A stretch of 35,382 nt of DNA from Candidatus Methylomirabilis sp. (lineage in GTDB: Bacteria > DYJV01), in the NCBI GenBank assembly GCA_020722945.1, contig DYJV01000023.1:1-35382 (forward strand), given 5' to 3'. This document shows positions 2,764 through 22,056 of the stretch, piece after piece. The notes beneath the pieces are model-generated. The model had not been told where the DNA came from and did no database searches. It saw nothing but the letters and a program-made list of their open reading frames with translations. Made by a program: the position numbers and the translations under genes. Position 1 is the stretch's first letter, and each line of letters starts with the position of its first letter.

Positions 2764-4383
2764 ATATTTTATATTTATATTATTACCATTGTTGGACTAT
2801 TTTCACTACTTCTAATTCCAATTTTAGTATCGCTATCACATCAGTTTAACTTCTTAGATATTCCGAATGAAAGGAAAGCTCACTCTAAAGCTACACCCCT
2901 TGCAGGTGGTTTATTAATTTTTCTGATAACTTTTATATTTTCAAAGATATTTATAAAAGATACATTTATCAACCTACTTCTTTTTTACAGCATTTTTATC
3001 TTTCTTCTCGGTTTTTACGATGACATCTTTAACTTAAAGGCAATATTAAAACTTATTGCCCAAATAATAATTGTATCACTTTTTCTCACAAATATAGAAC
3101 CCTCCTACTTTATAAACATCTTTAACAACTACTCTTTAAATTTTATAGCAACACTTTTTTGGATTCTTCTGTTAATTAACTCTATAAATTTGATAGATGG
3201 AGTGGACGGCCTTGCGGGTGGGATATGTTTTATTGCTTTTATAAGTATCGGAAGTATTGCACTTAATAAAAATCTTTTACCCTTATTTCTATTCTCTCTC
3301 ATCTTTGCCAGTGCTTTAATTGTTTTTCTAAGGTTTAACATCCCGCCAGCAAAAATTTTTCTCGGTGATAATGGAAGTTTATACCTTGGATTTATAGTTT
3401 CAGGAGCAAGTCTCTATATTTCATCAAAAACATTGGTATTACATTCATTCCTTATCCCAGCAATGTTTCTTTTTATTCCACTAATTGATGTATTTAGAGT
3501 TACATTTACAAGATTAAATAAAGGTGGAAATATTTTTAAAGCTGACAGAGAGCATATTCACCACAAACTTATGGAGTATGGTTTCTCTGAAAGACAGGTA
3601 ATCCTTATACTTTATTCAGCTTCATCTCTGCTATCAGTTATCACTTTAAAAACCTACATCTCATCTTTACATTATGTAGTAACATCTATCTTTTTAATTT
3701 TCTTCATTTTATTTATGGCAGCAGGTTTACTCAAAGGTCATAGGCTGAAGAGATTTATCAGATTGTATAACCTAAATATAAGGACACTTCTTAATAAATT
3801 GATCATAGGGACAGAGATAACCGTAAAGAAAAGCAGATCTATACTGGTATGCAGTTTTATAACTTTATTATCAATACTTTTTTTATATTACAAGGGTGGA
3901 CAGTTTATAACTTGGGACATTTACACTTCTATAATTTTTATAATATTTTCAATAATCTTAATAGCCAATCTCCAGCTTCTAAATACTGATGACACTACAA
4001 AGATATTTTCAAACTTTCTTATCTTCTGGATATATATGTTTATATCTTATATCCTAAATCAGAAAGATATATTTACTTTGAATCTAATAACCTTCATTCT
4101 ATTTTTGGTAATACTATACAAAACAATCGTAAAGAAGCAGTTTGACCTATTTATCTACAATCCATTAGAAATTCTTATAATACATACAATTTTTGTATTA
4201 CTATTCTCAATTACTAATATGAGCTTCCCACTTATCGGAAAAACTTTTATAATTTACTATTCAACAAAAGATTTTTTATGGGACAACAGAGTTGAGTATA
4301 AGATATTTGTGCCTATGACAATATTTATGATACTACTCTATCCATTTTATAACCTACTCACCCTACTTGAAAAGATAAAATAA
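2764..4383 (+). CDS. WecA/TagO-type undecaprenyl-phosphate phosphoglycosyltransferase with C-terminal membrane extension, non-canonical ATA start
   Basis: A polytopic inner-membrane enzyme expected to transfer a HexNAc-1-phosphate from UDP-sugar to undecaprenyl phosphate, starting a surface glycan. Family motifs are IPNERKAHSKATPLAGG (about residues 37-53), LGFYDD (about 84), NLIDGVDGLAGG (about 141), FLGDNGSLYLGF (about 200) and the cytoplasmic HIHHKL motif (about 263). The family usually ends near 340-360 residues; here about 190 more residues with several hydrophobic segments follow, unlike anything I recognise. The open frame is continuous from the stop at 2749. No ATG, GTG or TTG occurs before 3190, which is inside the conserved core. 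The best start is ATA at 2764, six bases after AAGGGAG at 2751-2757. That gives 539 residues. The frame and family are sure; the start is inferred. Confidence 0.8.
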   Translation: MFYIYIITIVGLFSLLLIPILVSLSHQFNFLDIPNERKAHSKATPLAGGLLIFLITFIFSKIFIKDTFINLLLFYSIFIFLLGFYDDIFNLKAILKLIAQIIIVSLFLTNIEPSYFINIFNNYSLNFIATLFWILLLINSINLIDGVDGLAGGICFIAFISIGSIALNKNLLPLFLFSLIFASALIVFLRFNIPPAKIFLGDNGSLYLGFIVSGASLYISSKTLVLHSFLIPAMFLFIPLIDVFRVTFTRLNKGGNIFKADREHIHHKLMEYGFSERQVILILYSASSLLSVITLKTYISSLHYVVTSIFLIFFILFMAAGLLKGHRLKRFIRLYNLNIRTLLNKLIIGTEITVKKSRSILVCSFITLLSILFLYYKGGQFITWDIYTSIIFIIFSIILIANLQLLNTDDTTKIFSNFLIFWIYMFISYILNQKDIFTLNLITFILFLVILYKTIVKKQFDLFIYNPLEILIIHTIFVLLFSITNMSFPLIGKTFIIYYSTKDFLWDNRVEYKIFVPMTIFMILLYPFYNLLTLLEKIK

Positions 4384-5202: not shown

Positions 5203-7407
5203 TTATTTTTTTATAAACCTTTCAAGTGATGAAAAATATGTCTTTCTCATTGCATTTACTTCACAATCTACTATCTTATTTATCTTTAAGAAGTTGCCGC
5301 CAACCTCACCTATTACTTTGTAATATTGATTAGAAGACTTTAATTTATCCTCTACATGAGATAAATTGGATGGAGAAACTGATACAATAGCCCTTGACTG
5401 CGACTCAGAAAATAGTAAGAATGTGTCATTTATCGGAAGCTCAATCTTAACAACAGCACCTATCGGCTTATCTCCAGTAATACAACACTCTGAAAGAGCC
5501 ACAGCCAATCCACCTTCAGAAATATCGTGAGCAGAGTTGAGAAGGTTAGATTTGTTCAATTCAAGGATGGTGTTTATAAGTGTTTTCTCCTTTTCAAGAT
5601 CAATTTCTGGACACCTACCCTTTACCATCTTGTGTATCACAGCAAGATATTCAGAACCACCAAGCTCTTCAAAAGTTTCTCCAAGAAGAATTATCTTATC
5701 TCCAATATTTTTAAAATATTGACTGATAAAATTGTCAACTTTATCAATCAAACCAACCATACCAATTGTAGGTGTAGGGTATATCGGCGTTCCCGATGTT
5801 TCATTATAAAAACTTACATTACCACTAATGACAGGGGTTTCCAAAATTTGACAAGCTTCTGATATCCCATTTACAGCTTCTTTAAATTGCCACATAATTT
5901 CAGGTTTTTCAGGATTTCCAAAGTTAAGACAATCAGTTATCGCCAAAGGCTTACCACCACTACATGCAACATTTCTTGCAGATTCAGAAACAGCAATTTT
6001 ACCACCTTTAAAAGGATCGAGATAACAGTATCTACTGTTACAGTCAGTTGATATAGCAACACACTTGTTGTTCTCTTTTATCCTTATCACAGCAGCATCA
6101 GAGCCTGGTAAAACTACAGAGTTTGTCCTCACCATATGATCATACTGCTGATAAACCCATTTTTTACTTGCTATATTCAAAGATGACAATATTTCATCAA
6201 GCAGCTCATTATAATTTTGTGGAAAATTCAATGAGCTTATATCAAAATTATTAACCTCATCAATATAAGAGGGTTTCTTAAATGGTCTTTTATATGCTGG
6301 AGCTTGATCAGATATCGGTCCAACAGGGATATCTGCAACTTTTTCATTTTTAAAAAGTAATCTTAAAAAACCATTGTCTGTAACTTTACCAACAACAACA
6401 GCATCAAGATCCCACTTTTTAAATATATCTTTTACTTTCTCCTCATAACCTTTTTTAGCAACTATCAACATCCTCTCCTGAGACTCTGATAACATCATTT
6501 CGTAAGGAGTCATACCCTCTTCTCTTGCTGGGATATCATCAAGGTAAAGTTCTATCCCTGTCCCAGCTCTACCCGCCATCTCGACAGATGAAGAGGTCAA
6601 TCCTGCTGCACCCATATCTTGAATACCAACAATATAATTGTTTTGCATCAATTCAAGACACGCTTCAAGTAATTTCTTCTCTGTAAAAGGATCTCCCACT
6701 TGAACAGTAGGTCTCTTGTCTTGTGATGTCTCATCAAACTCTTCAGAAGCAAGGAGTGAGCAACCATGTATCCCATCTCTCCCTGTTTTAGAACCAACAT
6801 ATATAACAGGATTGCCAACACCCTTTGCATATCCGTAAAATATTTTATCCTGTTCAACAACTCCAAGATTAAAAACATTTACAAGTATATTTCCGTTGTA
6901 ACATGGATCAAAATATATCTCGCCACCAACAGTAGGAACACCCATGCAGTTCCCATAATCTGCAATACCTGAAACAACCCCTGACAAGAGGTATTTGGTT
7001 CTTTCATTATCAGGTGAGCCAAATCTTAATGAATTCAAAGATGCAATAGGTCTTGCACCCATTGTAAAAATATCTCTCAAAATACCACCAACACCTGTCG
7101 CTGCACCTTGGTAAGGCTCAACAAATGAAGGGTGATTGTGGCTTTCCATTTTAAAAGCAACTGCTATCCCATCACCAATATCTATAATACCTGCATTTTC
7201 ACCAGGTCCCTGGATAACCCAAGGTTTTGATGTTGGAAAGTTTTTTAGGTAAACTCTTGAACTTTTGTAACTGCAATGCTCACTCCACATTACTGAAAAT
7301 ATACCAATTTCTGTAAGTGTAGGTGTTCTTCCAAGTATTTTTAGGATATTATTGTATTCATCTTCTGTAAGCCCATGCTCTATTGCAACCTTTAAATCAA
7401 TATTCAC
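5203..7407 (-). CDS. purL: Phosphoribosylformylglycinamidine synthase II
   Basis: A 734-residue small-type PurL. It catalyses the ATP- and glutamine-dependent amination of FGAR to FGAM in purine synthesis, together with separate PurS and PurQ subunits, which are not in this window. Motifs: [11 protein letters not shown] near residue 40, [14 protein letters not shown] near 70, the metal and substrate site [19 protein letters not shown] near 87-105, [10 protein letters not shown], and the second-half counterparts PGSDAAVIR and [16 protein letters not shown]. Full length. Its start overlaps the end of the upstream amidohydrolase by 11 bases, so translation is probably coupled. Confidence 0.97.
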
Positions 7408-16743: not shown

Positions 16744-18894
16744 TTGGAACTTTTAAATATGCTCAATCCACAACAAGCAGAAGCAGTTAAAAACAACAGT
16801 AATCCACTACTCGTCCTTGCAGGTGCAGGAAGTGGTAAAACTACTCTTCTTACCACAAAATACTCATATCTCGTAAAAAAAGAGGGGCTCTCCCCTTCAT
16901 CTATATTAGCAGTTACTTTCACAAACAAAGCTGCAAATGAGATGAAAGAACGGATAGAGACACTTATCAACATAAGAAAGAATACTCCATGGATTTCAAC
17001 ATTCCACGCATTTGGCACAAAAGTATTAAGACGCTTCATAGATAAAATTGGTTACAGTAAAGATTTCTCAATTTACGATGATAGTGAACAGAAAAACTTC
17101 ATAAAAAAATTATTAAAGAGGGATTTTTCATATCTTGATAAAAATAAATTCCCTGAAGGTAAAGTTATTAATTTCATAAATCACTTCAAAAATAGAGGGA
17201 TGTTCCCTGAAGATGTTGAAGTTCAAGAAAACTACACAAATAATATCTTAAAAAAAATATATTCAACTTATCAGGAAACCATGAAGGTGAACAACTCCTC
17301 CGATTTTGCAGATCTCCTACTGCTAACTTACAAACTACTTAACGAACATCAGGAGATATTTGATTATTTTCAACATATTTTTGATTACATACTTGTTGAT
17401 GAGTATCAGGACACCAATCATATTCAGTATAAAATTATAAAACTTCTCTCTAAAAATAAGAAGAGGATATGTGTAGTAGGCGACGATGACCAGTCAATTT
17501 ATAGTTGGCGAGGTGCAACAGTAGACAATATCTTAAAATTCGAGCAAGATTTTCCTGATGCGAAAGTCATCAAATTAGAGGAGAATTACCGCTCTACCAA
17601 AAATATTCTCAATGCAGCTAATCATCTCATAAGCAAAAATATTTTTAGAAAAAAGAAAAATTTATGGACAGCAGGTAAATCAGGGGAGAAGATAAAACTT
17701 TTTACTGCACAAAACGAATATGAAGAAGCAAGGTTTGTTGTAAACAAACTACAATCACTCACTGATTTAGGAGATACTGCTATACTTTACCGGACCAATG
17801 CCCAATCAAGGGTGATTGAAGATGAGCTTGTAAGATCAAGTATCCCTTACAAAATAGTGGGTGGATTTAAGTTTTTTGATAGAAAAGAGGTAAAAGATAT
17901 TATCACTTACCTAAAATTAATCAATGGCTCAGAAGACACTCTTTGTTACGAAAGGGTTATAAACACTCCAAATCGTGGAATTGGTGAGAGGAGTTTCGAA
18001 AAGTTAGTAGAACTATCTTACTCTGAGAATAAATCTCTTTTCGAAATATTTGAAAATATCTCTGAGAGCACAACAAAATTTACATCAAAAGCATCTGCCG
18101 GAATAAAAAATTTCTATAATATATTAAGTAAATTTAGAAATATGAAGGGAACTATCCCACTTTTTGAGCTTACCTACAAACTTCTTAACGAAATTAATTA
18201 TACCAATCTATTTGAGACCTTTGACCCAATAGAGAGGGAGAATAAGGAGGAGAACCTTCAAGAATTAATAAGTTCTATAAAAAATTTTGAAATCACTTAC
18301 CCTGAAGCAACACTCACAGATTACCTCGACACAGTTTCGCTTGCATCTTCCATGGATACTCCTAACAGGGGAGATTCTGTTAATCTAATGACTATCCACT
18401 CTGCAAAGGGGCTTGAATTTAAAAATATATTTCTGATAGGATTTGAAGATGATATTATACCTCATGCCAACTCCAAAATAAATCCTCAAAACATAGAGGA
18501 GGAGCGAAGATTGTCTTACGTGGCAATTACAAGAGCAAAAGAGAATCTCTTTATATCTTTCTGTAACAATAGAAACATAGGGAGAGTTTTCCAGAGAAGT
18601 AACCCATCTCCATTTCTCTCTGATATCCCTCATAATTTAATAGAGATAGTTAATAAAGGCAGTGAAGATTTTATCAGAAATATCCCATATTCATCTCACA
18701 ACAGAGACAATGTTACTGATACTACCAACCAAAAATCTATAAGATCCGGAGTAACAGTCAAACATAAAACTTTTGGAATAGGTAAAGTAATCTCTGTAAT
18801 AGGAAAGGGTGAAGAGCAGAAAATAATAGTTTCATTTAATAATTTTGGACTGAAAACTTTACTTACAGAGAAAGCTGGACTTACTATTTTATAA
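16744..18894 (+). CDS. UvrD/PcrA family ATP-dependent DNA helicase
   Basis: A 716-residue superfamily 1A helicase, 3'-5', for repair and clearing of DNA-bound proteins. Motifs in order: LNPQQAEAV (Q motif), AGAGSGKT near 28, TFTNKAA, DEYQDTN near 220, GDDDQSIYSWRGA, LEENYRS, TIHSAKGLEF and YVAITRA. The C-terminal tail (HKTFGIGKVISV) is a PcrA-type Tudor-like domain that in PcrA contacts RNA polymerase. The start is TTG at 16744, placed by AAAGGACATC; an ATG at 16759 is too far from a ribosome site. Last gene of the operon. Its TAA stop lies inside the terminal box of a candidate attC site, exactly where the cassette region begins. Confidence 0.93.
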   Translation: MELLNMLNPQQAEAVKNNSNPLLVLAGAGSGKTTLLTTKYSYLVKKEGLSPSSILAVTFTNKAANEMKERIETLINIRKNTPWISTFHAFGTKVLRRFIDKIGYSKDFSIYDDSEQKNFIKKLLKRDFSYLDKNKFPEGKVINFINHFKNRGMFPEDVEVQENYTNNILKKIYSTYQETMKVNNSSDFADLLLLTYKLLNEHQEIFDYFQHIFDYILVDEYQDTNHIQYKIIKLLSKNKKRICVVGDDDQSIYSWRGATVDNILKFEQDFPDAKVIKLEENYRSTKNILNAANHLISKNIFRKKKNLWTAGKSGEKIKLFTAQNEYEEARFVVNKLQSLTDLGDTAILYRTNAQSRVIEDELVRSSIPYKIVGGFKFFDRKEVKDIITYLKLINGSEDTLCYERVINTPNRGIGERSFEKLVELSYSENKSLFEIFENISESTTKFTSKASAGIKNFYNILSKFRNMKGTIPLFELTYKLLNEINYTNLFETFDPIERENKEENLQELISSIKNFEITYPEATLTDYLDTVSLASSMDTPNRGDSVNLMTIHSAKGLEFKNIFLIGFEDDIIPHANSKINPQNIEEERRLSYVAITRAKENLFISFCNNRNIGRVFQRSNPSPFLSDIPHNLIEIVNKGSEDFIRNIPYSSHNRDNVTDTTNQKSIRSGVTVKHKTFGIGKVISVIGKGEEQKIIVSFNNFGLKTLLTEKAGLTIL

Positions 18895-18946
18895 CACAAA
18901 AATCAGCCTCCGAGTTTACAAGGTCAGCTGGGTTTAATTATTGGAC
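18891..18946 (-). other. Candidate attC-like site a, downstream of vapC
   Basis: Imperfect palindrome on the minus strand, CAGCTGACC-ttgtaaactc-GGAGGCTG, with a GTGTTA outer box that overlaps the helicase stop codon. The 28 bases of the centre are nearly the same as in site b (20902-20929). Its outer boxes are degenerate; the call rests mainly on its kinship with site b and its place after vapC. Confidence 0.45.
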
Positions 18947-18947
18947 G

Positions 18948-19346
18948 CTATTCTTTCCAATCTTCGAGTTTTAGGTTTTTAATTCTTATAAATTCGTTTG
19001 TATTATTGGTAACAAGAATGAGATTGCGTGCAACTGCTTGAGCTGCAATGAGCATGTCATAAGGGCCGATAAGATTTCCTTCTTTTTTTAGCTGTGATCT
19101 TATAATTCCAAAGTGTTCAGCGTCGGTATTACCAAAATCAATAATTTCAAATGGAGCCAGAAATTCAGTTAGTGATATTCTGTTTTTTTCAATGTTTTGA
19201 CTGTTGTAAACGCCAAATTGCAATTCGGCTACCGTGATGCTGGATAAATAAACGGTTTGTTCAAGTGCACTGTGCAATTTTTCCAAGACATAAAGTGGCT
19301 TTCTGTTCTTGATAAAAATACAGATATTCGTATCAAGCAAATACAT
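18948..19346 (-). CDS. vapC: VapC-type PIN toxin
   Basis: A 132-residue PIN-domain ribonuclease, toxin of a type II toxin-antitoxin pair. It has YLLDTNICIFI at the N-terminus (first aspartate), TVAELQFGV (glutamate, about 41), NLIGPYDMLIAAQA (aspartate, about 99) and LVTNNTNEF (last acidic cluster, with N where D is common). Full length for the family. Its ATG overlaps the vapB stop (TAATG). Confidence 0.93.
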   Translation of the reverse strand: MYLLDTNICIFIKNRKPLYVLEKLHSALEQTVYLSSITVAELQFGVYNSQNIEKNRISLTEFLAPFEIIDFGNTDAEHFGIIRSQLKKEGNLIGPYDMLIAAQAVARNLILVTNNTNEFIRIKNLKLEDWKE

Positions 19347-19576
19347 TACAGACCCTTTCTCTCCTTCATTTGCGGCTGTTCTCTCCCGTTTTCCATGAAA
19401 TCATCAGTAAACCCATGTAGTCCATGGAGAAATGTTTCCCACACGCGGTTTTTAGGAAAAAGAATTACAGAATCGCCAATCTTTTGGATTAGCACATCTG
19501 TCCCTTCAAAATTGTATTCTTTAGGCAAACGAACCGCTTGACTGCGTCCATTTTGAAATAATTTAGCTGTTTGCAT
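19346..19576 (-). CDS. vapB: VapB-type antitoxin (SpoVT/AbrB fold)
   Basis: A 76-residue antitoxin. The N-terminal swapped-hairpin DNA-binding domain is typical: TAKLFQNGRSQAVRLPKEY, then GDSVILFPK. The C-terminal part should wrap the toxin. The ATG at 19576 is chosen over an upstream ATG at 19591 because GGAGGTG lies five bases before it. Neutralises VapC and, with it, should repress its own promoter, whose -10 region contains an AT-rich palindrome. Confidence 0.9.
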   Translation of the reverse strand: MQTAKLFQNGRSQAVRLPKEYNFEGTDVLIQKIGDSVILFPKNRVWETFLHGLHGFTDDFMENGREQPQMKERKGL

Positions 19577-19593
19577 GTTGCACCTCCACAATT

Positions 19594-19622
19594 AATATAT
19601 ATCACGGTATATACATTGTCAA
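19594..19622 (-). promoter_or_regulatory. vapBC promoter with overlapping palindrome
   Basis: On the minus strand TTGACA (19617-19622), a 17-base spacer and TATATT (19594-19599). The spacer and -10 carry the palindromic TATATACCGTGATATATA, a likely VapBC operator. Confidence 0.75.
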
Positions 19623-19665
19623 GGTAAAGATATCTTTCCTACCAGATTGTTGTTCTTTTATTTAC

Positions 19666-19789
19666 ATCCAACATTTGGTTAAGCTGCATTTTCGAGCCCA
19701 CAGGGCTTGGTGCAATTTGTGCAAAAACGAGCGTAGCGAGTTGCACAAATCGTGACAAAGAAAATGTCAGGTTGAACCAGATGTTCAAC
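19666..19789 (-). other. Candidate attC site c, between the DsrE gene and vapB
   Basis: The best of the four sites. On the minus strand the outer boxes are GTTGAAC and GTTGGAT; the second fits the integron core consensus GTTRRRY. The arms AACATCTGGTT..ATTTTC and GAAAATGCAGCTTAACC pair over about 24 bases with two unpaired bases on one side, the asymmetry typical of attC. GCAGCTTAACC resembles the L' box. The centre is a further hairpin, TTTGTGCA (19716-19723) with TGCACAAA (19742-19749). Length 124 bases, within the attC range. Confidence 0.6.
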
Positions 19790-19999
19790 GATCTTCTTTT
19801 TATTGTATTATAATATATTTCAATGCATTTTATAAGTTACTATAATATTATATATTTTAAATAAGAAATTATTTTTTTAAGTATTTTTTATTGGGTCTGG
19901 TCAAAAAATACGTTGTTTCGAGACAAGACTTAAGATATTTCTTACAGGAATCTCGTTTTAAAATGTAATAATTAATATATTATTATATAATTAATCAAA
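19790..19999. other. Gene-free AT-rich stretch after the DsrE gene
   Basis: Contains a perfect 9-bp inverted repeat, GTATTTTTT (19881-19889) and AAAAAATAC (19903-19911), and a CGAGA..TCTCG pair around 19920-19955. No gene seen. Confidence 0.5.
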
Positions 20000-20341
20000 T
20001 TATGGTTTTATATATGCAAATCCATTAAGCTGTTTTTCAATTATTTCTTTAACGCCAACCGGCACAATTTCAATAAATTCAAATATCTCCATCGGTTTTA
20101 TCATTAAGTTATTAAGTGCATTTCTACAAGCACATATTTTAATTCCTATATTTGATAGTTCTTTTAGTTGATTAGATATACTACTATCTATTTTTTTAAA
20201 CTCCTTAACTGCAACTGAATTTGCTACTACTTCTATCTCAAAGGACTCATTAGTTATTACCTGTATCATGTTTTGTAAATTTGCAATCAGTAATTTCCAT
20301 TTTTCATTTTCATCAATATGAAACACAGCTTTTATTTGCAT
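20000..20341 (-). CDS. DsrE-family protein
   Basis: A 113-residue soluble protein of the DsrE/DsrF-like fold. It has KAVFHIDENEKWKLLIANLQN at the start, EIEVVANSVAV, a single conserved-type cysteine pair region IKICACRNAL near residue 70 and the C-terminal VGVKEIIEKQLNGFAYIKP, typical of the small stand-alone group. Relatives take part in sulfur-transfer chemistry, but many have no known role. AGGGGGAAGT precedes the ATG closely. It sits alone on the minus strand between two recombination-like elements, consistent with a cassette gene. Confidence 0.85.
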   Translation of the reverse strand: MQIKAVFHIDENEKWKLLIANLQNMIQVITNESFEIEVVANSVAVKEFKKIDSSISNQLKELSNIGIKICACRNALNNLMIKPMEIFEFIEIVPVGVKEIIEKQLNGFAYIKP

Positions 20342-20468
20342 ACTTCCCCCTGAAAATAAATTTGAGTCTTCTAAGAAAAGTCAAAAAACCTACAAATTGA
20401 AATTTAAAATACTTGTATTATTATAAGCACTTAATTTTATAAGAGCAACCATTTTTATAGGAGAGTCA

Positions 20469-20505
20469 TAATTAGACAAACCTGAAAAAAAGGTTTAACT
20501 AATTA
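20469..20505. repeat. Inverted repeat after the LysE fragment
   Basis: TAATTAG-ac-AAACCT, a 7-base loop, AGGTTT-aa-CTAATTA. Nearly symmetric in both strands. There is no following T tract, so it is not a classical terminator. It touches the end of the 45-bp direct repeat. Confidence 0.6.
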
Positions 20506-20867
20506 TTTGGATATTGTCCTAACAGATTGAGCTTTCTGTAAAATGCCCAATCACCATTTTCAATATTTTTCAACCTATTTTTCTGTGCTATAATAAAATT
20601 GAAACCAATCCATATTAAGTAGATGACACCAATCCATTGAGCAATATTCAGAAGACTGGGATAGGCTGAAAGTATTGCTACTAAACCAAGGACAGCAGAA
20701 AGCATATATATGAAATCACCCGTAATAGTTCCGAAAACCACTTTCATTCCTCCACAAACACCACCCCGAGCAGTTGCATTAAGAATGGCTATTGTTCCGG
20801 AACCCGTATAGAGCTGAAATAATAATACAGCTAAAATAAAACCGTTGTAATTTTGTATTTCAAACAT
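20499..20867 (-). pseudogene. LysE/RhtB-type exporter, C-terminally truncated
   Basis: About 122 residues. The N-terminal half matches LysE-family amino acid exporters: hydrophobic segment LAVLLFQLYTGSGTIAILNA near residue 15, GVCGGMKVVFGTITGDF, and the segment IAQWIGVIYLIWIGFNFI. Full members have about 200 residues and six membrane segments; here only about three remain. The frame then runs into ENGDWAFYRKLNLLGQYPNN, whose DNA is the 45-bp repeat also found at 22012. It looks like a gene cut by recombination and joined to foreign sequence. ATG at 20867 is preferred to TTG at 20891; neither has a strong ribosome site. Function as an exporter is unlikely. Confidence 0.65.
20503..20547. repeat. 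45-bp direct repeat, copy 1
   Basis: Matches 22012-22056 with one mismatch (20543 against 22052). It starts TTATTTGGATATTGTCC on the + strand. The copies are 1509 bases apart and bracket the LysE fragment, attC-like sites b and d, DUF2442, DUF4160 and the recombinase remnant. Confidence 0.9.
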
Positions 20868-20887
20868 ACGATTTATTCTTTGTGAAA

Positions 20888-20944
20888 CCAAACGTAGAAC
20901 TCAGCCGCCAAGTTTACAAGGCCGGCTGGATCGTCATGTTTGCC
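20888..20944 (-). other. Candidate attC-like site b, between DUF2442 and the LysE fragment
   Basis: Imperfect palindrome. Minus strand CAGCCGGCC-ttgtaaactt-GGCGGCTG pairs except for one extra G, and the flanks CAAAC..GTTTG close the stem. The DUF2442 frame runs into the site, as is common for cassette genes. The loop region is nearly the same as in site a. The outer core boxes fit the integron consensus only partly. Confidence 0.5.
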
Positions 20945-21225
20945 GAAGGAGCTTCTTGCCGATGCATCCAGTTGGGTAGTTGAGAATCAGTGGCTTCAGC
21001 ATAAAGAGTCTCAGGGGCAATATCTATTTCATCTGCCCACGTCAGCACCCCAAGCTCTTCATTAATTTTAAAGCTTTTGAAAAATTCTATGTTTTTGAAC
21101 TTTTCAAATACACCACCCTTAGATAAATATTTTGAAAAATCAACAACTCCTTTGGCACCATCCTCGAAGGTCACTTCAATTTTATAATCACCCTTATAAT
21201 TTGCAGAAATCACATCTTTATACAT
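20914..21225 (-). CDS. DUF2442 protein
   Basis: A 103-residue protein. It has YKIEVTFEDGAKGVVDF, FEKFKNIEFFKSFKIN, and LGVLTWADEIDIAPETLYAEA, which is the DUF2442 signature (the WP/W-x-D-x-DIAPE segment). Often encoded next to a DUF4160 gene, and such pairs have been proposed to act as toxin-antitoxin-like modules; this is not shown here. GAGGTG precedes the ATG. The last about 12 residues are encoded by attC-like site b. Confidence 0.88.
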   Translation of the reverse strand: MYKDVISANYKGDYKIEVTFEDGAKGVVDFSKYLSKGGVFEKFKNIEFFKSFKINEELGVLTWADEIDIAPETLYAEATDSQLPNWMHRQEAPSANMTIQPAL

Positions 21226-21238
21226 GGATTCACCTCAT

Positions 21239-21499
21239 TTATTTCAATGGGTCAATTTTTTTGGGATTTTGGTTGTTTTTGGCTAAGTTCCAATTCTTCA
21301 AAAGTTCGTCCTTATGTTGAGCAGCCCATTCAATTACAAGACCCAACGCTCGTGGGGAAATATTGCCCTCCAGGATACGGAGCGATTCTATTTCGATTAC
21401 CACTTTTTCTCTGCCATATCGTGCATGAAAATGGGGAGGATTGTGATCATCAAAAAACATAGCAACGATTATCCCATAAAACCGACTGATCTCAGGCAT
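21239..21499 (-). CDS. DUF4160 protein
   Basis: An 86-residue protein with the DUF4160 signature ISRFYGIIVAMFFDDHNPPHFHARYG near the N-terminus and SPRALGLVIEWAAQHKDEL later. Its histidine-rich HNPPHFHARYG motif suggests a catalytic or metal role, but none is established. Thirteen bases before DUF2442, with AAAGGA before the ATG. The two genes form one cassette-like unit. Confidence 0.88.
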   Translation of the reverse strand: MPEISRFYGIIVAMFFDDHNPPHFHARYGREKVVIEIESLRILEGNISPRALGLVIEWAAQHKDELLKNWNLAKNNQNPKKIDPLK

Positions 21500-21519
21500 T
21501 TTAATTATCCTTTTAATAC

Positions 21520-21581
21520 GGCCAACAAGTTATTAGCTGGACAAAGTCGTCCCGCTAACACACACGATTGCAATGTTAGCT
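21520..21581 (-). other. Candidate attC or attI-like site d, upstream of DUF4160
   Basis: On the minus strand the outer boxes are AGCTAAC and GTTGGCC, with stem GTTAGCGGGAC / GTCCAGCTAATAAC around a short loop. The left arm carries about eight extra bases, so the pairing is lopsided. It sits between the recombinase remnant and the first cassette-like gene. Confidence 0.45.
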
Positions 21582-21694
21582 ATTTTAGGACAAATCATAC
21601 CAAATACAATTATTTAAAGCCATTGCGATATTAAAAAATTTAAAAATTCAGCTAACTTTTTCTCTTTTTTGCCGTCTTGCTCGGTATCTGCCTG

Positions 21695-21796
21695 TCAATA
21701 AACATGTCCACCTGCCAATAGACAAGTGCAGCGGGTATAAATCATCGTTGTTCTCACGTCAGTGTGCCCCAGCATTGTATGAATTGTCCATAAAAG
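21695..21796 (-). pseudogene. Tyrosine recombinase (integrase) C-terminal remnant
   Basis: Minus-strand translation over 21734-21778 gives TMLGHTDVRTTMIYT, the last conserved box of XerC/IntI/phage-type tyrosine recombinases. It includes the LGH histidine and the nucleophile tyrosine. The frame then reads RCT..., meets TGA at 21697-21695 and lacks the usual continuation. Upstream, similarity is lost within a few codons, where the sequence turns into a ribosome site and ATG of another gene. No arginine or earlier boxes are present, so the enzyme is dead. Whether it was an integron integrase or a phage-type one cannot be told from 15-20 residues. Confidence 0.75.
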
Positions 21797-21880
21797 TATC
21801 TCCTTTGTATATTTTGCTCATATCGGCAACTTAAAGTAAGAATTAGCAGGGCTTCATACACCTTGGACACTATAAAAATA

Positions 21881-21910
21881 AATATACTATATTCATTTAT
21901 TCTTTGTCAA
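21881..21910 (-). promoter_or_regulatory. Strong promoter reading into the cassette-like array
   Basis: Minus strand TTGACA (21905-21910), an 18-base spacer and TATATT (21881-21886). It is followed by a leader of about 85 bases with AAAGGAG and an ATG at 21791 that opens only a 10-codon frame into the recombinase remnant. GCCGATAT in the leader (about 21825-21832) resembles a sigma-28 -10 box. No other gene is seen between 21800 and 22010. Confidence 0.6.
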
Positions 21911-22011
21911 TATTAGAATAGAACATTTTTTTATTTATAAGATTATTTAAAATATCCATTATACATTCTCTATCTATTATCTAATCAGTCATAAAAATAT
22001 TAAAATATTAC

Positions 22012-22056
22012 TTATTTGGATATTGTCCTAACAGATTGAGCTTTCTGTAAATTGCC
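22012..22056. repeat. 45-bp direct repeat, copy 2
   Basis: Partner of 20503-20547, one mismatch. It lies about 55 bases downstream of the alpha/beta hydrolase stop on the minus strand. A TAA formed at 22014-22012 is in frame with the hydrolase gene across an open stretch of 32 codons. Confidence 0.9.

What the first reader, a model, noticed from the sequence alone, without database searches (positions are those of the whole stretch)
18891..21800. Small degenerate integron cassette array (CALIN-like) at the 3' end of the uvrD/pcrA gene
Six small unrelated genes (vapB, vapC, DsrE, LysE fragment, DUF2442, DUF4160) all lie on one strand. They are interrupted by four imperfect palindromes with attC features and led by a tyrosine recombinase remnant and a strong promoter. 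The gene types are those often found as cassettes (toxin-antitoxin, DUFs). If true it adds an integron relic in a lineage where I know of no well-described ones.
Basis: partly seen in the sequence, partly recalled or inferred. Interest (0 to 1): 0.8.

Follow-up and report, generated by a model that had tools for sequence, protein, structure and literature searches.

The report
Small integron cassette array without integrase
Next to a DNA-repair gene, this bacterium from a sparsely sampled lineage carries a short row of captured 'gene cassettes', two of them toxin-antitoxin pairs whose near-copies sit in unrelated bacteria, showing that the integron gene-capture machinery once worked here although no intact integrase remains.

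Summary
The finding is real. A covariance model of attC sites, trained only on plasmid-borne cassettes, gives one hit in the whole 2.5-Mb genome: window 20887-20944, minus strand. A broader model that excludes the window ranks four sites of the array first in the 35-kb window, all on the minus strand.

The decisive evidence comes from single cassettes in other genomes. The VapBC unit, 19672-18892, is 94% identical over 781 bp to a unit in a genome drawn from the phylum of a named Desulfobacterales MAG. The match runs exactly from one GTT crossover to the next. The DUF4160-DUF2442 unit (DhiT-DhiA toxin-antitoxin) is 77-78% identical in five unrelated Desulfobacterales, Desulfopila and Smithella genomes, bounded by the same GTT positions, and its downstream neighbour differs each time.

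Genomes sharing these cassettes or their attC sites often carry full-length integron integrases. This genome has none, only an 18-residue IntI-like stub. It is therefore a CALIN: a cluster of attC sites lacking an integrase.

The LysE/DsrE middle section is decayed and its unit structure is unproven. Site 21520-21581 is weak. CALINs are a known kind, so this is a new, well-supported member in a little-sampled lineage, not a new kind of system.

The parts
16744..18894 (+). uvrD/pcrA helicase gene, intact; the last attC R' overlaps its stop codon
   Evidence: Pfam UvrD N/C and PcrA_UvrD_tudor; closest relative is the same-order genome G001, 52-54% identity against 44% or less elsewhere
18889..18946 (-). 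attC site D, degenerate (R" has AAT for AAC), 3' end of the VapBC cassette
   Evidence: CM 4.7 bits (R1) and 11.4 bits (R2), not significant alone; homologous to site B and to sites in G202, G145, G324, G454 and G063
18892..19672 (-). VapBC gene cassette, GTT to GTT
   Evidence: 781 bp at 94% identity in G202:C137:4290-5070, starting at GTTGGAC and ending at ...TGTTA exactly
18948..19346 (-). vapC toxin gene
   Evidence: NF047863 182.6 bits, over cut-off; PF01850
19346..19576 (-). vapB antitoxin gene (ATG start at 19576)
   Evidence: NF047862 121.6 bits, over cut-off
19594..19622 (-). promoter-like TTGACA-17-TATATT inside the VapBC cassette
   Evidence: 11 of 12; TTGACA and the sequence around it are kept in the G202 and G454 copies
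19666..19789 (-). attC site C, long (124 nt) type
   Evidence: CM 14.9 / 19.6 bits; DNA hairpin z = -5.3, 0 of 200 shuffles as stable; 82% identical site behind a GNAT gene in G416
20000..20341 (-). DsrE-like gene; cassette status unproven
   Evidence: PF02635; not found in the same-order relative G001
20499..20867 (-). LysE-family gene fragment, truncated
   Evidence: PF01810, profile 5-85 of 193; ends in a 48-nt repeat also at 22009-22056
20887..20944 (-). attC site B, best site, 3' end of the DhiT-DhiA cassette
   Evidence: only hit of models R1 and R2 in the whole genome, 28.8 and 37.8 bits; same site at the same place in L058, L059, L064, L065, L066
20891..21526 (-). DhiT-DhiA gene cassette, GTT to GTT
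   Evidence: 77-78% DNA identity to units bounded at the same positions in five unrelated genomes, each with different downstream sequence
20914..21225 (-). DUF2442 / DhiA-like antitoxin
   Evidence: PF10387; NF048016 35.4 bits, below cut-off
21239..21499 (-). DUF4160 / DhiT-like toxin
   Evidence: PF13711; NF048015 87.6 bits, cut-off 100
21520..21581 (-). site A: weak attC- or attI-like palindrome ahead of the first cassette; R' GTTGGCC at 21526-21520
   Evidence: CM 12.7 bits, E 0.61; hairpin not better than shuffles; DhiT-DhiA homology begins at its R'
21734..21787 (-). 18-residue integrase stub TIHTMLGHTDVRTTMIYT
   Evidence: best NCBIfam hit TIGR02249 at 20.0 bits, XerC 16.2; 80% over 20 aa to the full IntI of G324, 57% to XerC/D
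21881..21910 (-). promoter-like TTGACA-18-TATATT ahead of the stub
   Evidence: the surrounding 116 nt recur at C27:4857-4972 at 88%

Best explanation
This is a CALIN: two demonstrable integron gene cassettes, VapBC and DhiT-DhiA, plus decayed cassette remains (LysE fragment, possibly DsrE), joined through attC sites on one strand and ending at the uvrD stop codon. An integron integrase, resident and now lost or acting from another element, recombined the folded single strands of the attC sites and inserted cassettes that also circulate in integron-bearing bacteria such as Desulfobacterota. No intact integrase remains, so the array is immobile unless an integrase acts in trans. At least the VapBC cassette has a promoter-like element of its own, and the two toxin-antitoxin cassettes probably keep the array from being lost. 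Shown: unit-wise homology with exact GTT junctions, attC sites, absence of a full integrase. Inferred: direction of transfer, role of the stub, persistence through addiction.
For: An attC model trained on 15 plasmid cassettes gives one hit genome-wide, in this array. A model from 51 outside sites ranks the four array sites first in the window, all minus, while five control genomes give none and two integron-rich ones give 33 and 52. The VapBC cassette is 94% identical over exactly GTT-GTT in G202. The DhiT-DhiA cassette is bounded at GTT in five genomes with different downstream flanks. All 34 attC hits in the 80 DhiT loci lie on the gene's strand. The attC of site C sits behind another gene, next to priA, in G416. 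G202, G145, G063, G071 and G324 have IntI over the family cut-off; G000 has none. The same-order genome G001 also has two attC sites flanking genes on one contig.
Against: Sites 18889-18946 and 21520-21581 are not significant by model alone. No attC separates LysE from DsrE. The 5' end of the LysE unit (GTTTGGT) does not complement the R" of site C (GTTGAAC), so that stretch is rearranged. The genome is a draft with 5.8% estimated contamination, though uvrD on this contig is closest to the same-order relative.
Confidence: 0.93

Rival explanations
1. Off-target insertion: cassettes were inserted one by one at a genomic attG-like site at the uvrD end by an integrase acting in trans. This was never a complete integron, and the integrase stub is incidental. 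(A sub-case of the CALIN reading, rival only to a degraded resident integron.)
For: The array ends exactly at the uvrD stop, where the minus strand reads GTTATAA. A lone GNAT cassette with the same attC type lies beside priA in G416. The stub is on the cassette strand, whereas the intact integrons examined here have IntI divergent from the cassettes. The literature lists off-target insertion as a CALIN route (PMC8618304; attG sites cited in PMC12901181).
Against: The IntI-like stub sits just ahead of the first cassette, as a residue of a resident integron would. Archaeal integrons show attI directly downstream of intI (PMC9668308), so the stub's orientation is not disqualifying.
Confidence: 0.4
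2. An ordinary genomic island of toxin-antitoxin and DUF genes with chance palindromes or terminators.
For: Toxin-antitoxin genes cluster in islands; AT-rich DNA has many palindromes; two of the four sites are weak.
Against: The two units are found separately elsewhere with exact GTT boundaries and attC sites; the attC model hits nowhere else in the genome.
Confidence: 0.03
3. The array lies on a contaminant contig, not in the stated lineage.
For: Estimated contamination 5.79%; VapBC is 94% identical to a genome from another phylum.
Against: uvrD, adjoining the array, is closest by far to the same-order genome G001. G001 itself carries attC sites on another contig. The histidine kinase on the other side was uninformative.
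Confidence: 0.06

Closest known systems
CALIN elements (clusters of attC sites lacking an integron integrase), IntegronFinder sense
   Same: At least two attC sites in tandem on one strand with small cassette genes, and no intact intI in the genome; toxin-antitoxin cassettes are among the commonest known contents (PMC9024848; PMC8618304)
   Different: Very short (two to four sites, against an average of almost six per CALIN in PMC9024848), partly decayed, with an integrase stub, in a lineage with one same-order relative held
Chromosomal integrons of Desulfobacterota-like genomes (G202, G063, G324 and others)
   Same: Share cassettes or attC types: VapBC 94% DNA identity in G202; attC D-type sites in G324 and G063
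   Different: Those genomes have full-length IntI, G202 has dozens of attC sites, and in the integrons examined the cassettes run away from a divergent intI
Vibrio-type superintegron cassettes (VCR-length attC)
   Same: Site C is a long (124 nt) attC, comparable to the 126-nt qnrVC6 and fos sites used for training
   Different: Different sequence; no long array

Membership tests
CALIN / integron cassette array | At least two attC sites with R"-L"-L'-R' architecture on one strand | tested here: met
   20887-20944 and 19666-19789 minus by two independent CMs; two further weaker sites
CALIN / integron cassette array | Cassettes exist as independent units bounded at the GTT crossover | tested here: met
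   VapBC in G202, DhiT-DhiA in five genomes, exact ends
CALIN / integron cassette array | attC folds as a hairpin on the bottom strand with conserved pairing | tested here: inconclusive
   Site C z = -5.3; site B z = -1.6; sites A and D not better than shuffles. In the 12-member B/D family 80.8% of cells pair against at most 45.6% when slid, but covariation is modest
CALIN / integron cassette array | No functional integron integrase nearby | tested here: met
   No TIGR02249 match over the cut-off in the genome; the genome is a draft
Complete integron | intI gene next to attI | tested here: not met
   Only an 18-residue IntI-like stub; no demonstrable attI
CALIN / integron cassette array | Detection by IntegronFinder/HattCI itself | not testable with these tools
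   The programs and their attC model are not available; own models were built

The most novel reading that the evidence does not exclude
The lineage never kept a resident integron: cassettes arrived from Desulfobacterota-like neighbours and were inserted at the uvrD stop codon, an attG-type site, by an integrase acting in trans. Cassettes would then reach lineages that have no integron of their own.
Probability: 0.3. Interest if true: 0.5.

Novelty: new member of a known kind. Interest (0 to 1): 0.4.

Why it matters
It extends the integron cassette pool to a sparsely sampled lineage (one same-order relative held, which also carries attC sites). Base-exact junctions show that toxin-antitoxin cassettes move between phyla: a 94% identical VapBC cassette in another phylum points to fairly recent exchange. 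It also gives a small, clean case for studying how cassette arrays persist after the integrase is lost.

Tried and rejected
Rfam found nothing in the array. A simple R"/R' pattern scan recovered only site C above shuffles. Other recombinase C-termini in this genome (C69, C41, C152) looked at first like further IntI relics; none carries an attC by model. C69 is closest to G063:C18, an integrase below the IntI cut-off, and C41 is about equally close to several IntI and that protein, so I do not count them as integron parts. The same-order genome G001 gives no empty site, because mfd follows uvrD there. A first pair count used a mis-indexed structure and was redone. VapC in plasmids is at most about 50% identical, and the VapBC cassette DNA has only short vapB matches there. 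The histidine kinase on the far side of the array did not help to place the contig.

Full report
What is there. On the minus strand, from high to low coordinates, the region reads: a promoter-like element (21910-21881), an 18-residue tyrosine-recombinase stub (21787-21734), a palindrome A (21581-21520), DUF4160 and DUF2442 (21499-20914), site B (20944-20887), a truncated LysE gene (20867-20499), a DsrE-like gene (20341-20000), site C (19789-19666), vapB and vapC (19576-18948), and site D (18946-18889). The R' of site D overlaps the uvrD stop codon. NCBIfam names the two pairs as Leptospira-type VapBC (over cut-off) and DhiT/DhiA (below cut-off), so at least four of the six genes are two toxin-antitoxin modules.

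Are the palindromes attC sites? I built an attC covariance model from 15 cassettes of plasmid integrons. In the whole 2.5-Mb genome it gives a single hit up to E 10: site B, 28.8 bits. Without speed filters, site C follows in the region (14.9 bits), and sites D and A score weakly. A second model, from 51 sites in plasmids and environmental genomes and none from the window, ranks B, C, A and D as the four best places in the 35-kb window, all on the minus strand. In whole genomes it again finds only site B here, none in five control genomes, five in a sixth control genome (G059), and 33 and 52 in two integron-rich genomes. Site C folds far better than shuffles (z = -5.3); B modestly; A and D not.

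Are the genes cassettes? A relative search with DUF4160 returned 80 loci; all 34 attC hits in them lie on the gene's strand. In Smithella, three Desulfobacterales or Desulfobacteraceae genomes and a Desulfopila-labelled MAG, DNA homology to the window runs from about 21529-21513 to 20891-20885. At base level it begins right after the GTT of the preceding site and ends at the GTT of the cassette's own attC. The following bases differ in every genome (GTTTGGT here; GTTCGGA, GTTAGAT, GTTGTGC, GTTATGC, GTTCAGT elsewhere). In the Smithella contig the unit is an internal cassette among several attC sites. The VapBC unit, 19672-18892, is 94% identical over 781 bp in G202, a genome drawn from the phylum of the Desulfobacterales MAG G061; the match begins at GTTGGA and ends at GTTA. 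The attC of site C occurs at 82% identity behind an unrelated GNAT gene beside priA in G416. Type-D sites occur in several more genomes. Unit-wise exchange with exact crossover points is the defining behaviour of integron cassettes, and it is met.

Where is the integrase? No match over the integron-integrase cut-off exists in this genome or in the same-order relative G001, while G202, G145, G063, G071 and G324 have full-length IntI. The stub ahead of the array reads TIHTMLGHTDVRTTMIYT. It scores best against the integron-integrase family, but only 20.0 against 16.2 bits for XerC, and is 80% identical over 20 residues to the full IntI of G324. An integrase fragment whose residues [21 protein letters not shown] are the same as in the G324 IntI lies just downstream of the VapBC cassette in G202:C137, at the contig end. 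An IntI origin is therefore likely but rests on very few residues. The stub is on the same strand as the cassettes, unlike the divergent layout in the intact integrons seen here, so the left end is rearranged or of another origin.

The middle part. LysE is truncated and ends in a 48-nt stretch repeated at 22009-22056. No attC separates it from DsrE. The GTTTGGT at its start does not complement the R" of site C, as it would in one intact cassette (inference from the sequence), whereas the ends of VapBC and DhiT-DhiA do nearly complement each other. I infer that a deletion fused the front of a LysE cassette to other DNA. DsrE is absent from the same-order relative; its cassette status is open.

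Mechanism and status. Most likely an integron integrase inserted the cassettes through their folded attC strands, and the array then lost, or never had, a cis integrase. CALINs are described as arising by off-target insertion, loss of intI or rearrangement (PMC8618304). I cannot decide between a degraded resident integron and off-target insertion at the uvrD end. The toxin-antitoxin cassettes, with at least the VapBC unit holding its own promoter-like element, plausibly prevent loss of the array. This is a new member of a known kind; its value lies in the lineage, the clean cross-phylum cassette exchange and the array's small, dissectable size.

Limits. The genome is a draft with 5.8% estimated contamination. 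The neighbouring uvrD is closest to the same-order genome, and that genome also has attC sites, so I take the array to belong to the lineage. The species name was not available. IntegronFinder itself could not be run.

Noticed in passing
window 20500-20547 and 22009-22056: A 48-nt direct repeat (96% identical) flanks the stub/DhiT-DhiA/LysE stretch; both copies read as a protein tail ...YRKLNLLGQYPN(N/K)* and contain CTGTTAGGAC.
   Followed up: partly
window 21885-22002; G000:C27:4857-4972 (L020): A 116-nt promoter-bearing repeat, 88% identical, recurs once elsewhere in the genome; similar TTGACA...TATAGT elements stand ahead of the recombinase relics on C41 and C152.
   Followed up: partly
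G000:C69:15900-16055 (L011), C152:35668-35856 (L012), C41:7906-8100 (L013): Three further decayed tyrosine recombinases keeping mainly the C-terminus; in C41 an N-terminus is joined to the C-terminus by an internal deletion. The C69 relic is closest to the sub-cut-off integrase of G063:C18.
   Followed up: partly
L211 (G001:C191) 880-964 and 2955-3027: The same-order relative carries two strong attC sites on one strand around ATPase-like genes, with no integrase over the cut-off in that genome.
   Followed up: partly
L184 (G416:C6) 5400-6167: A lone GNAT gene with a site-C-type attC sits convergent to priA, apparently a single cassette inserted in a chromosome without an array.
   Followed up: no
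L128 (Elusimicrobia bacterium ND5_Bin_57): Eight attC hits around a DUF4160 gene, with a full IntI elsewhere in the same genome: a sizeable integron in Elusimicrobia.
   Followed up: no
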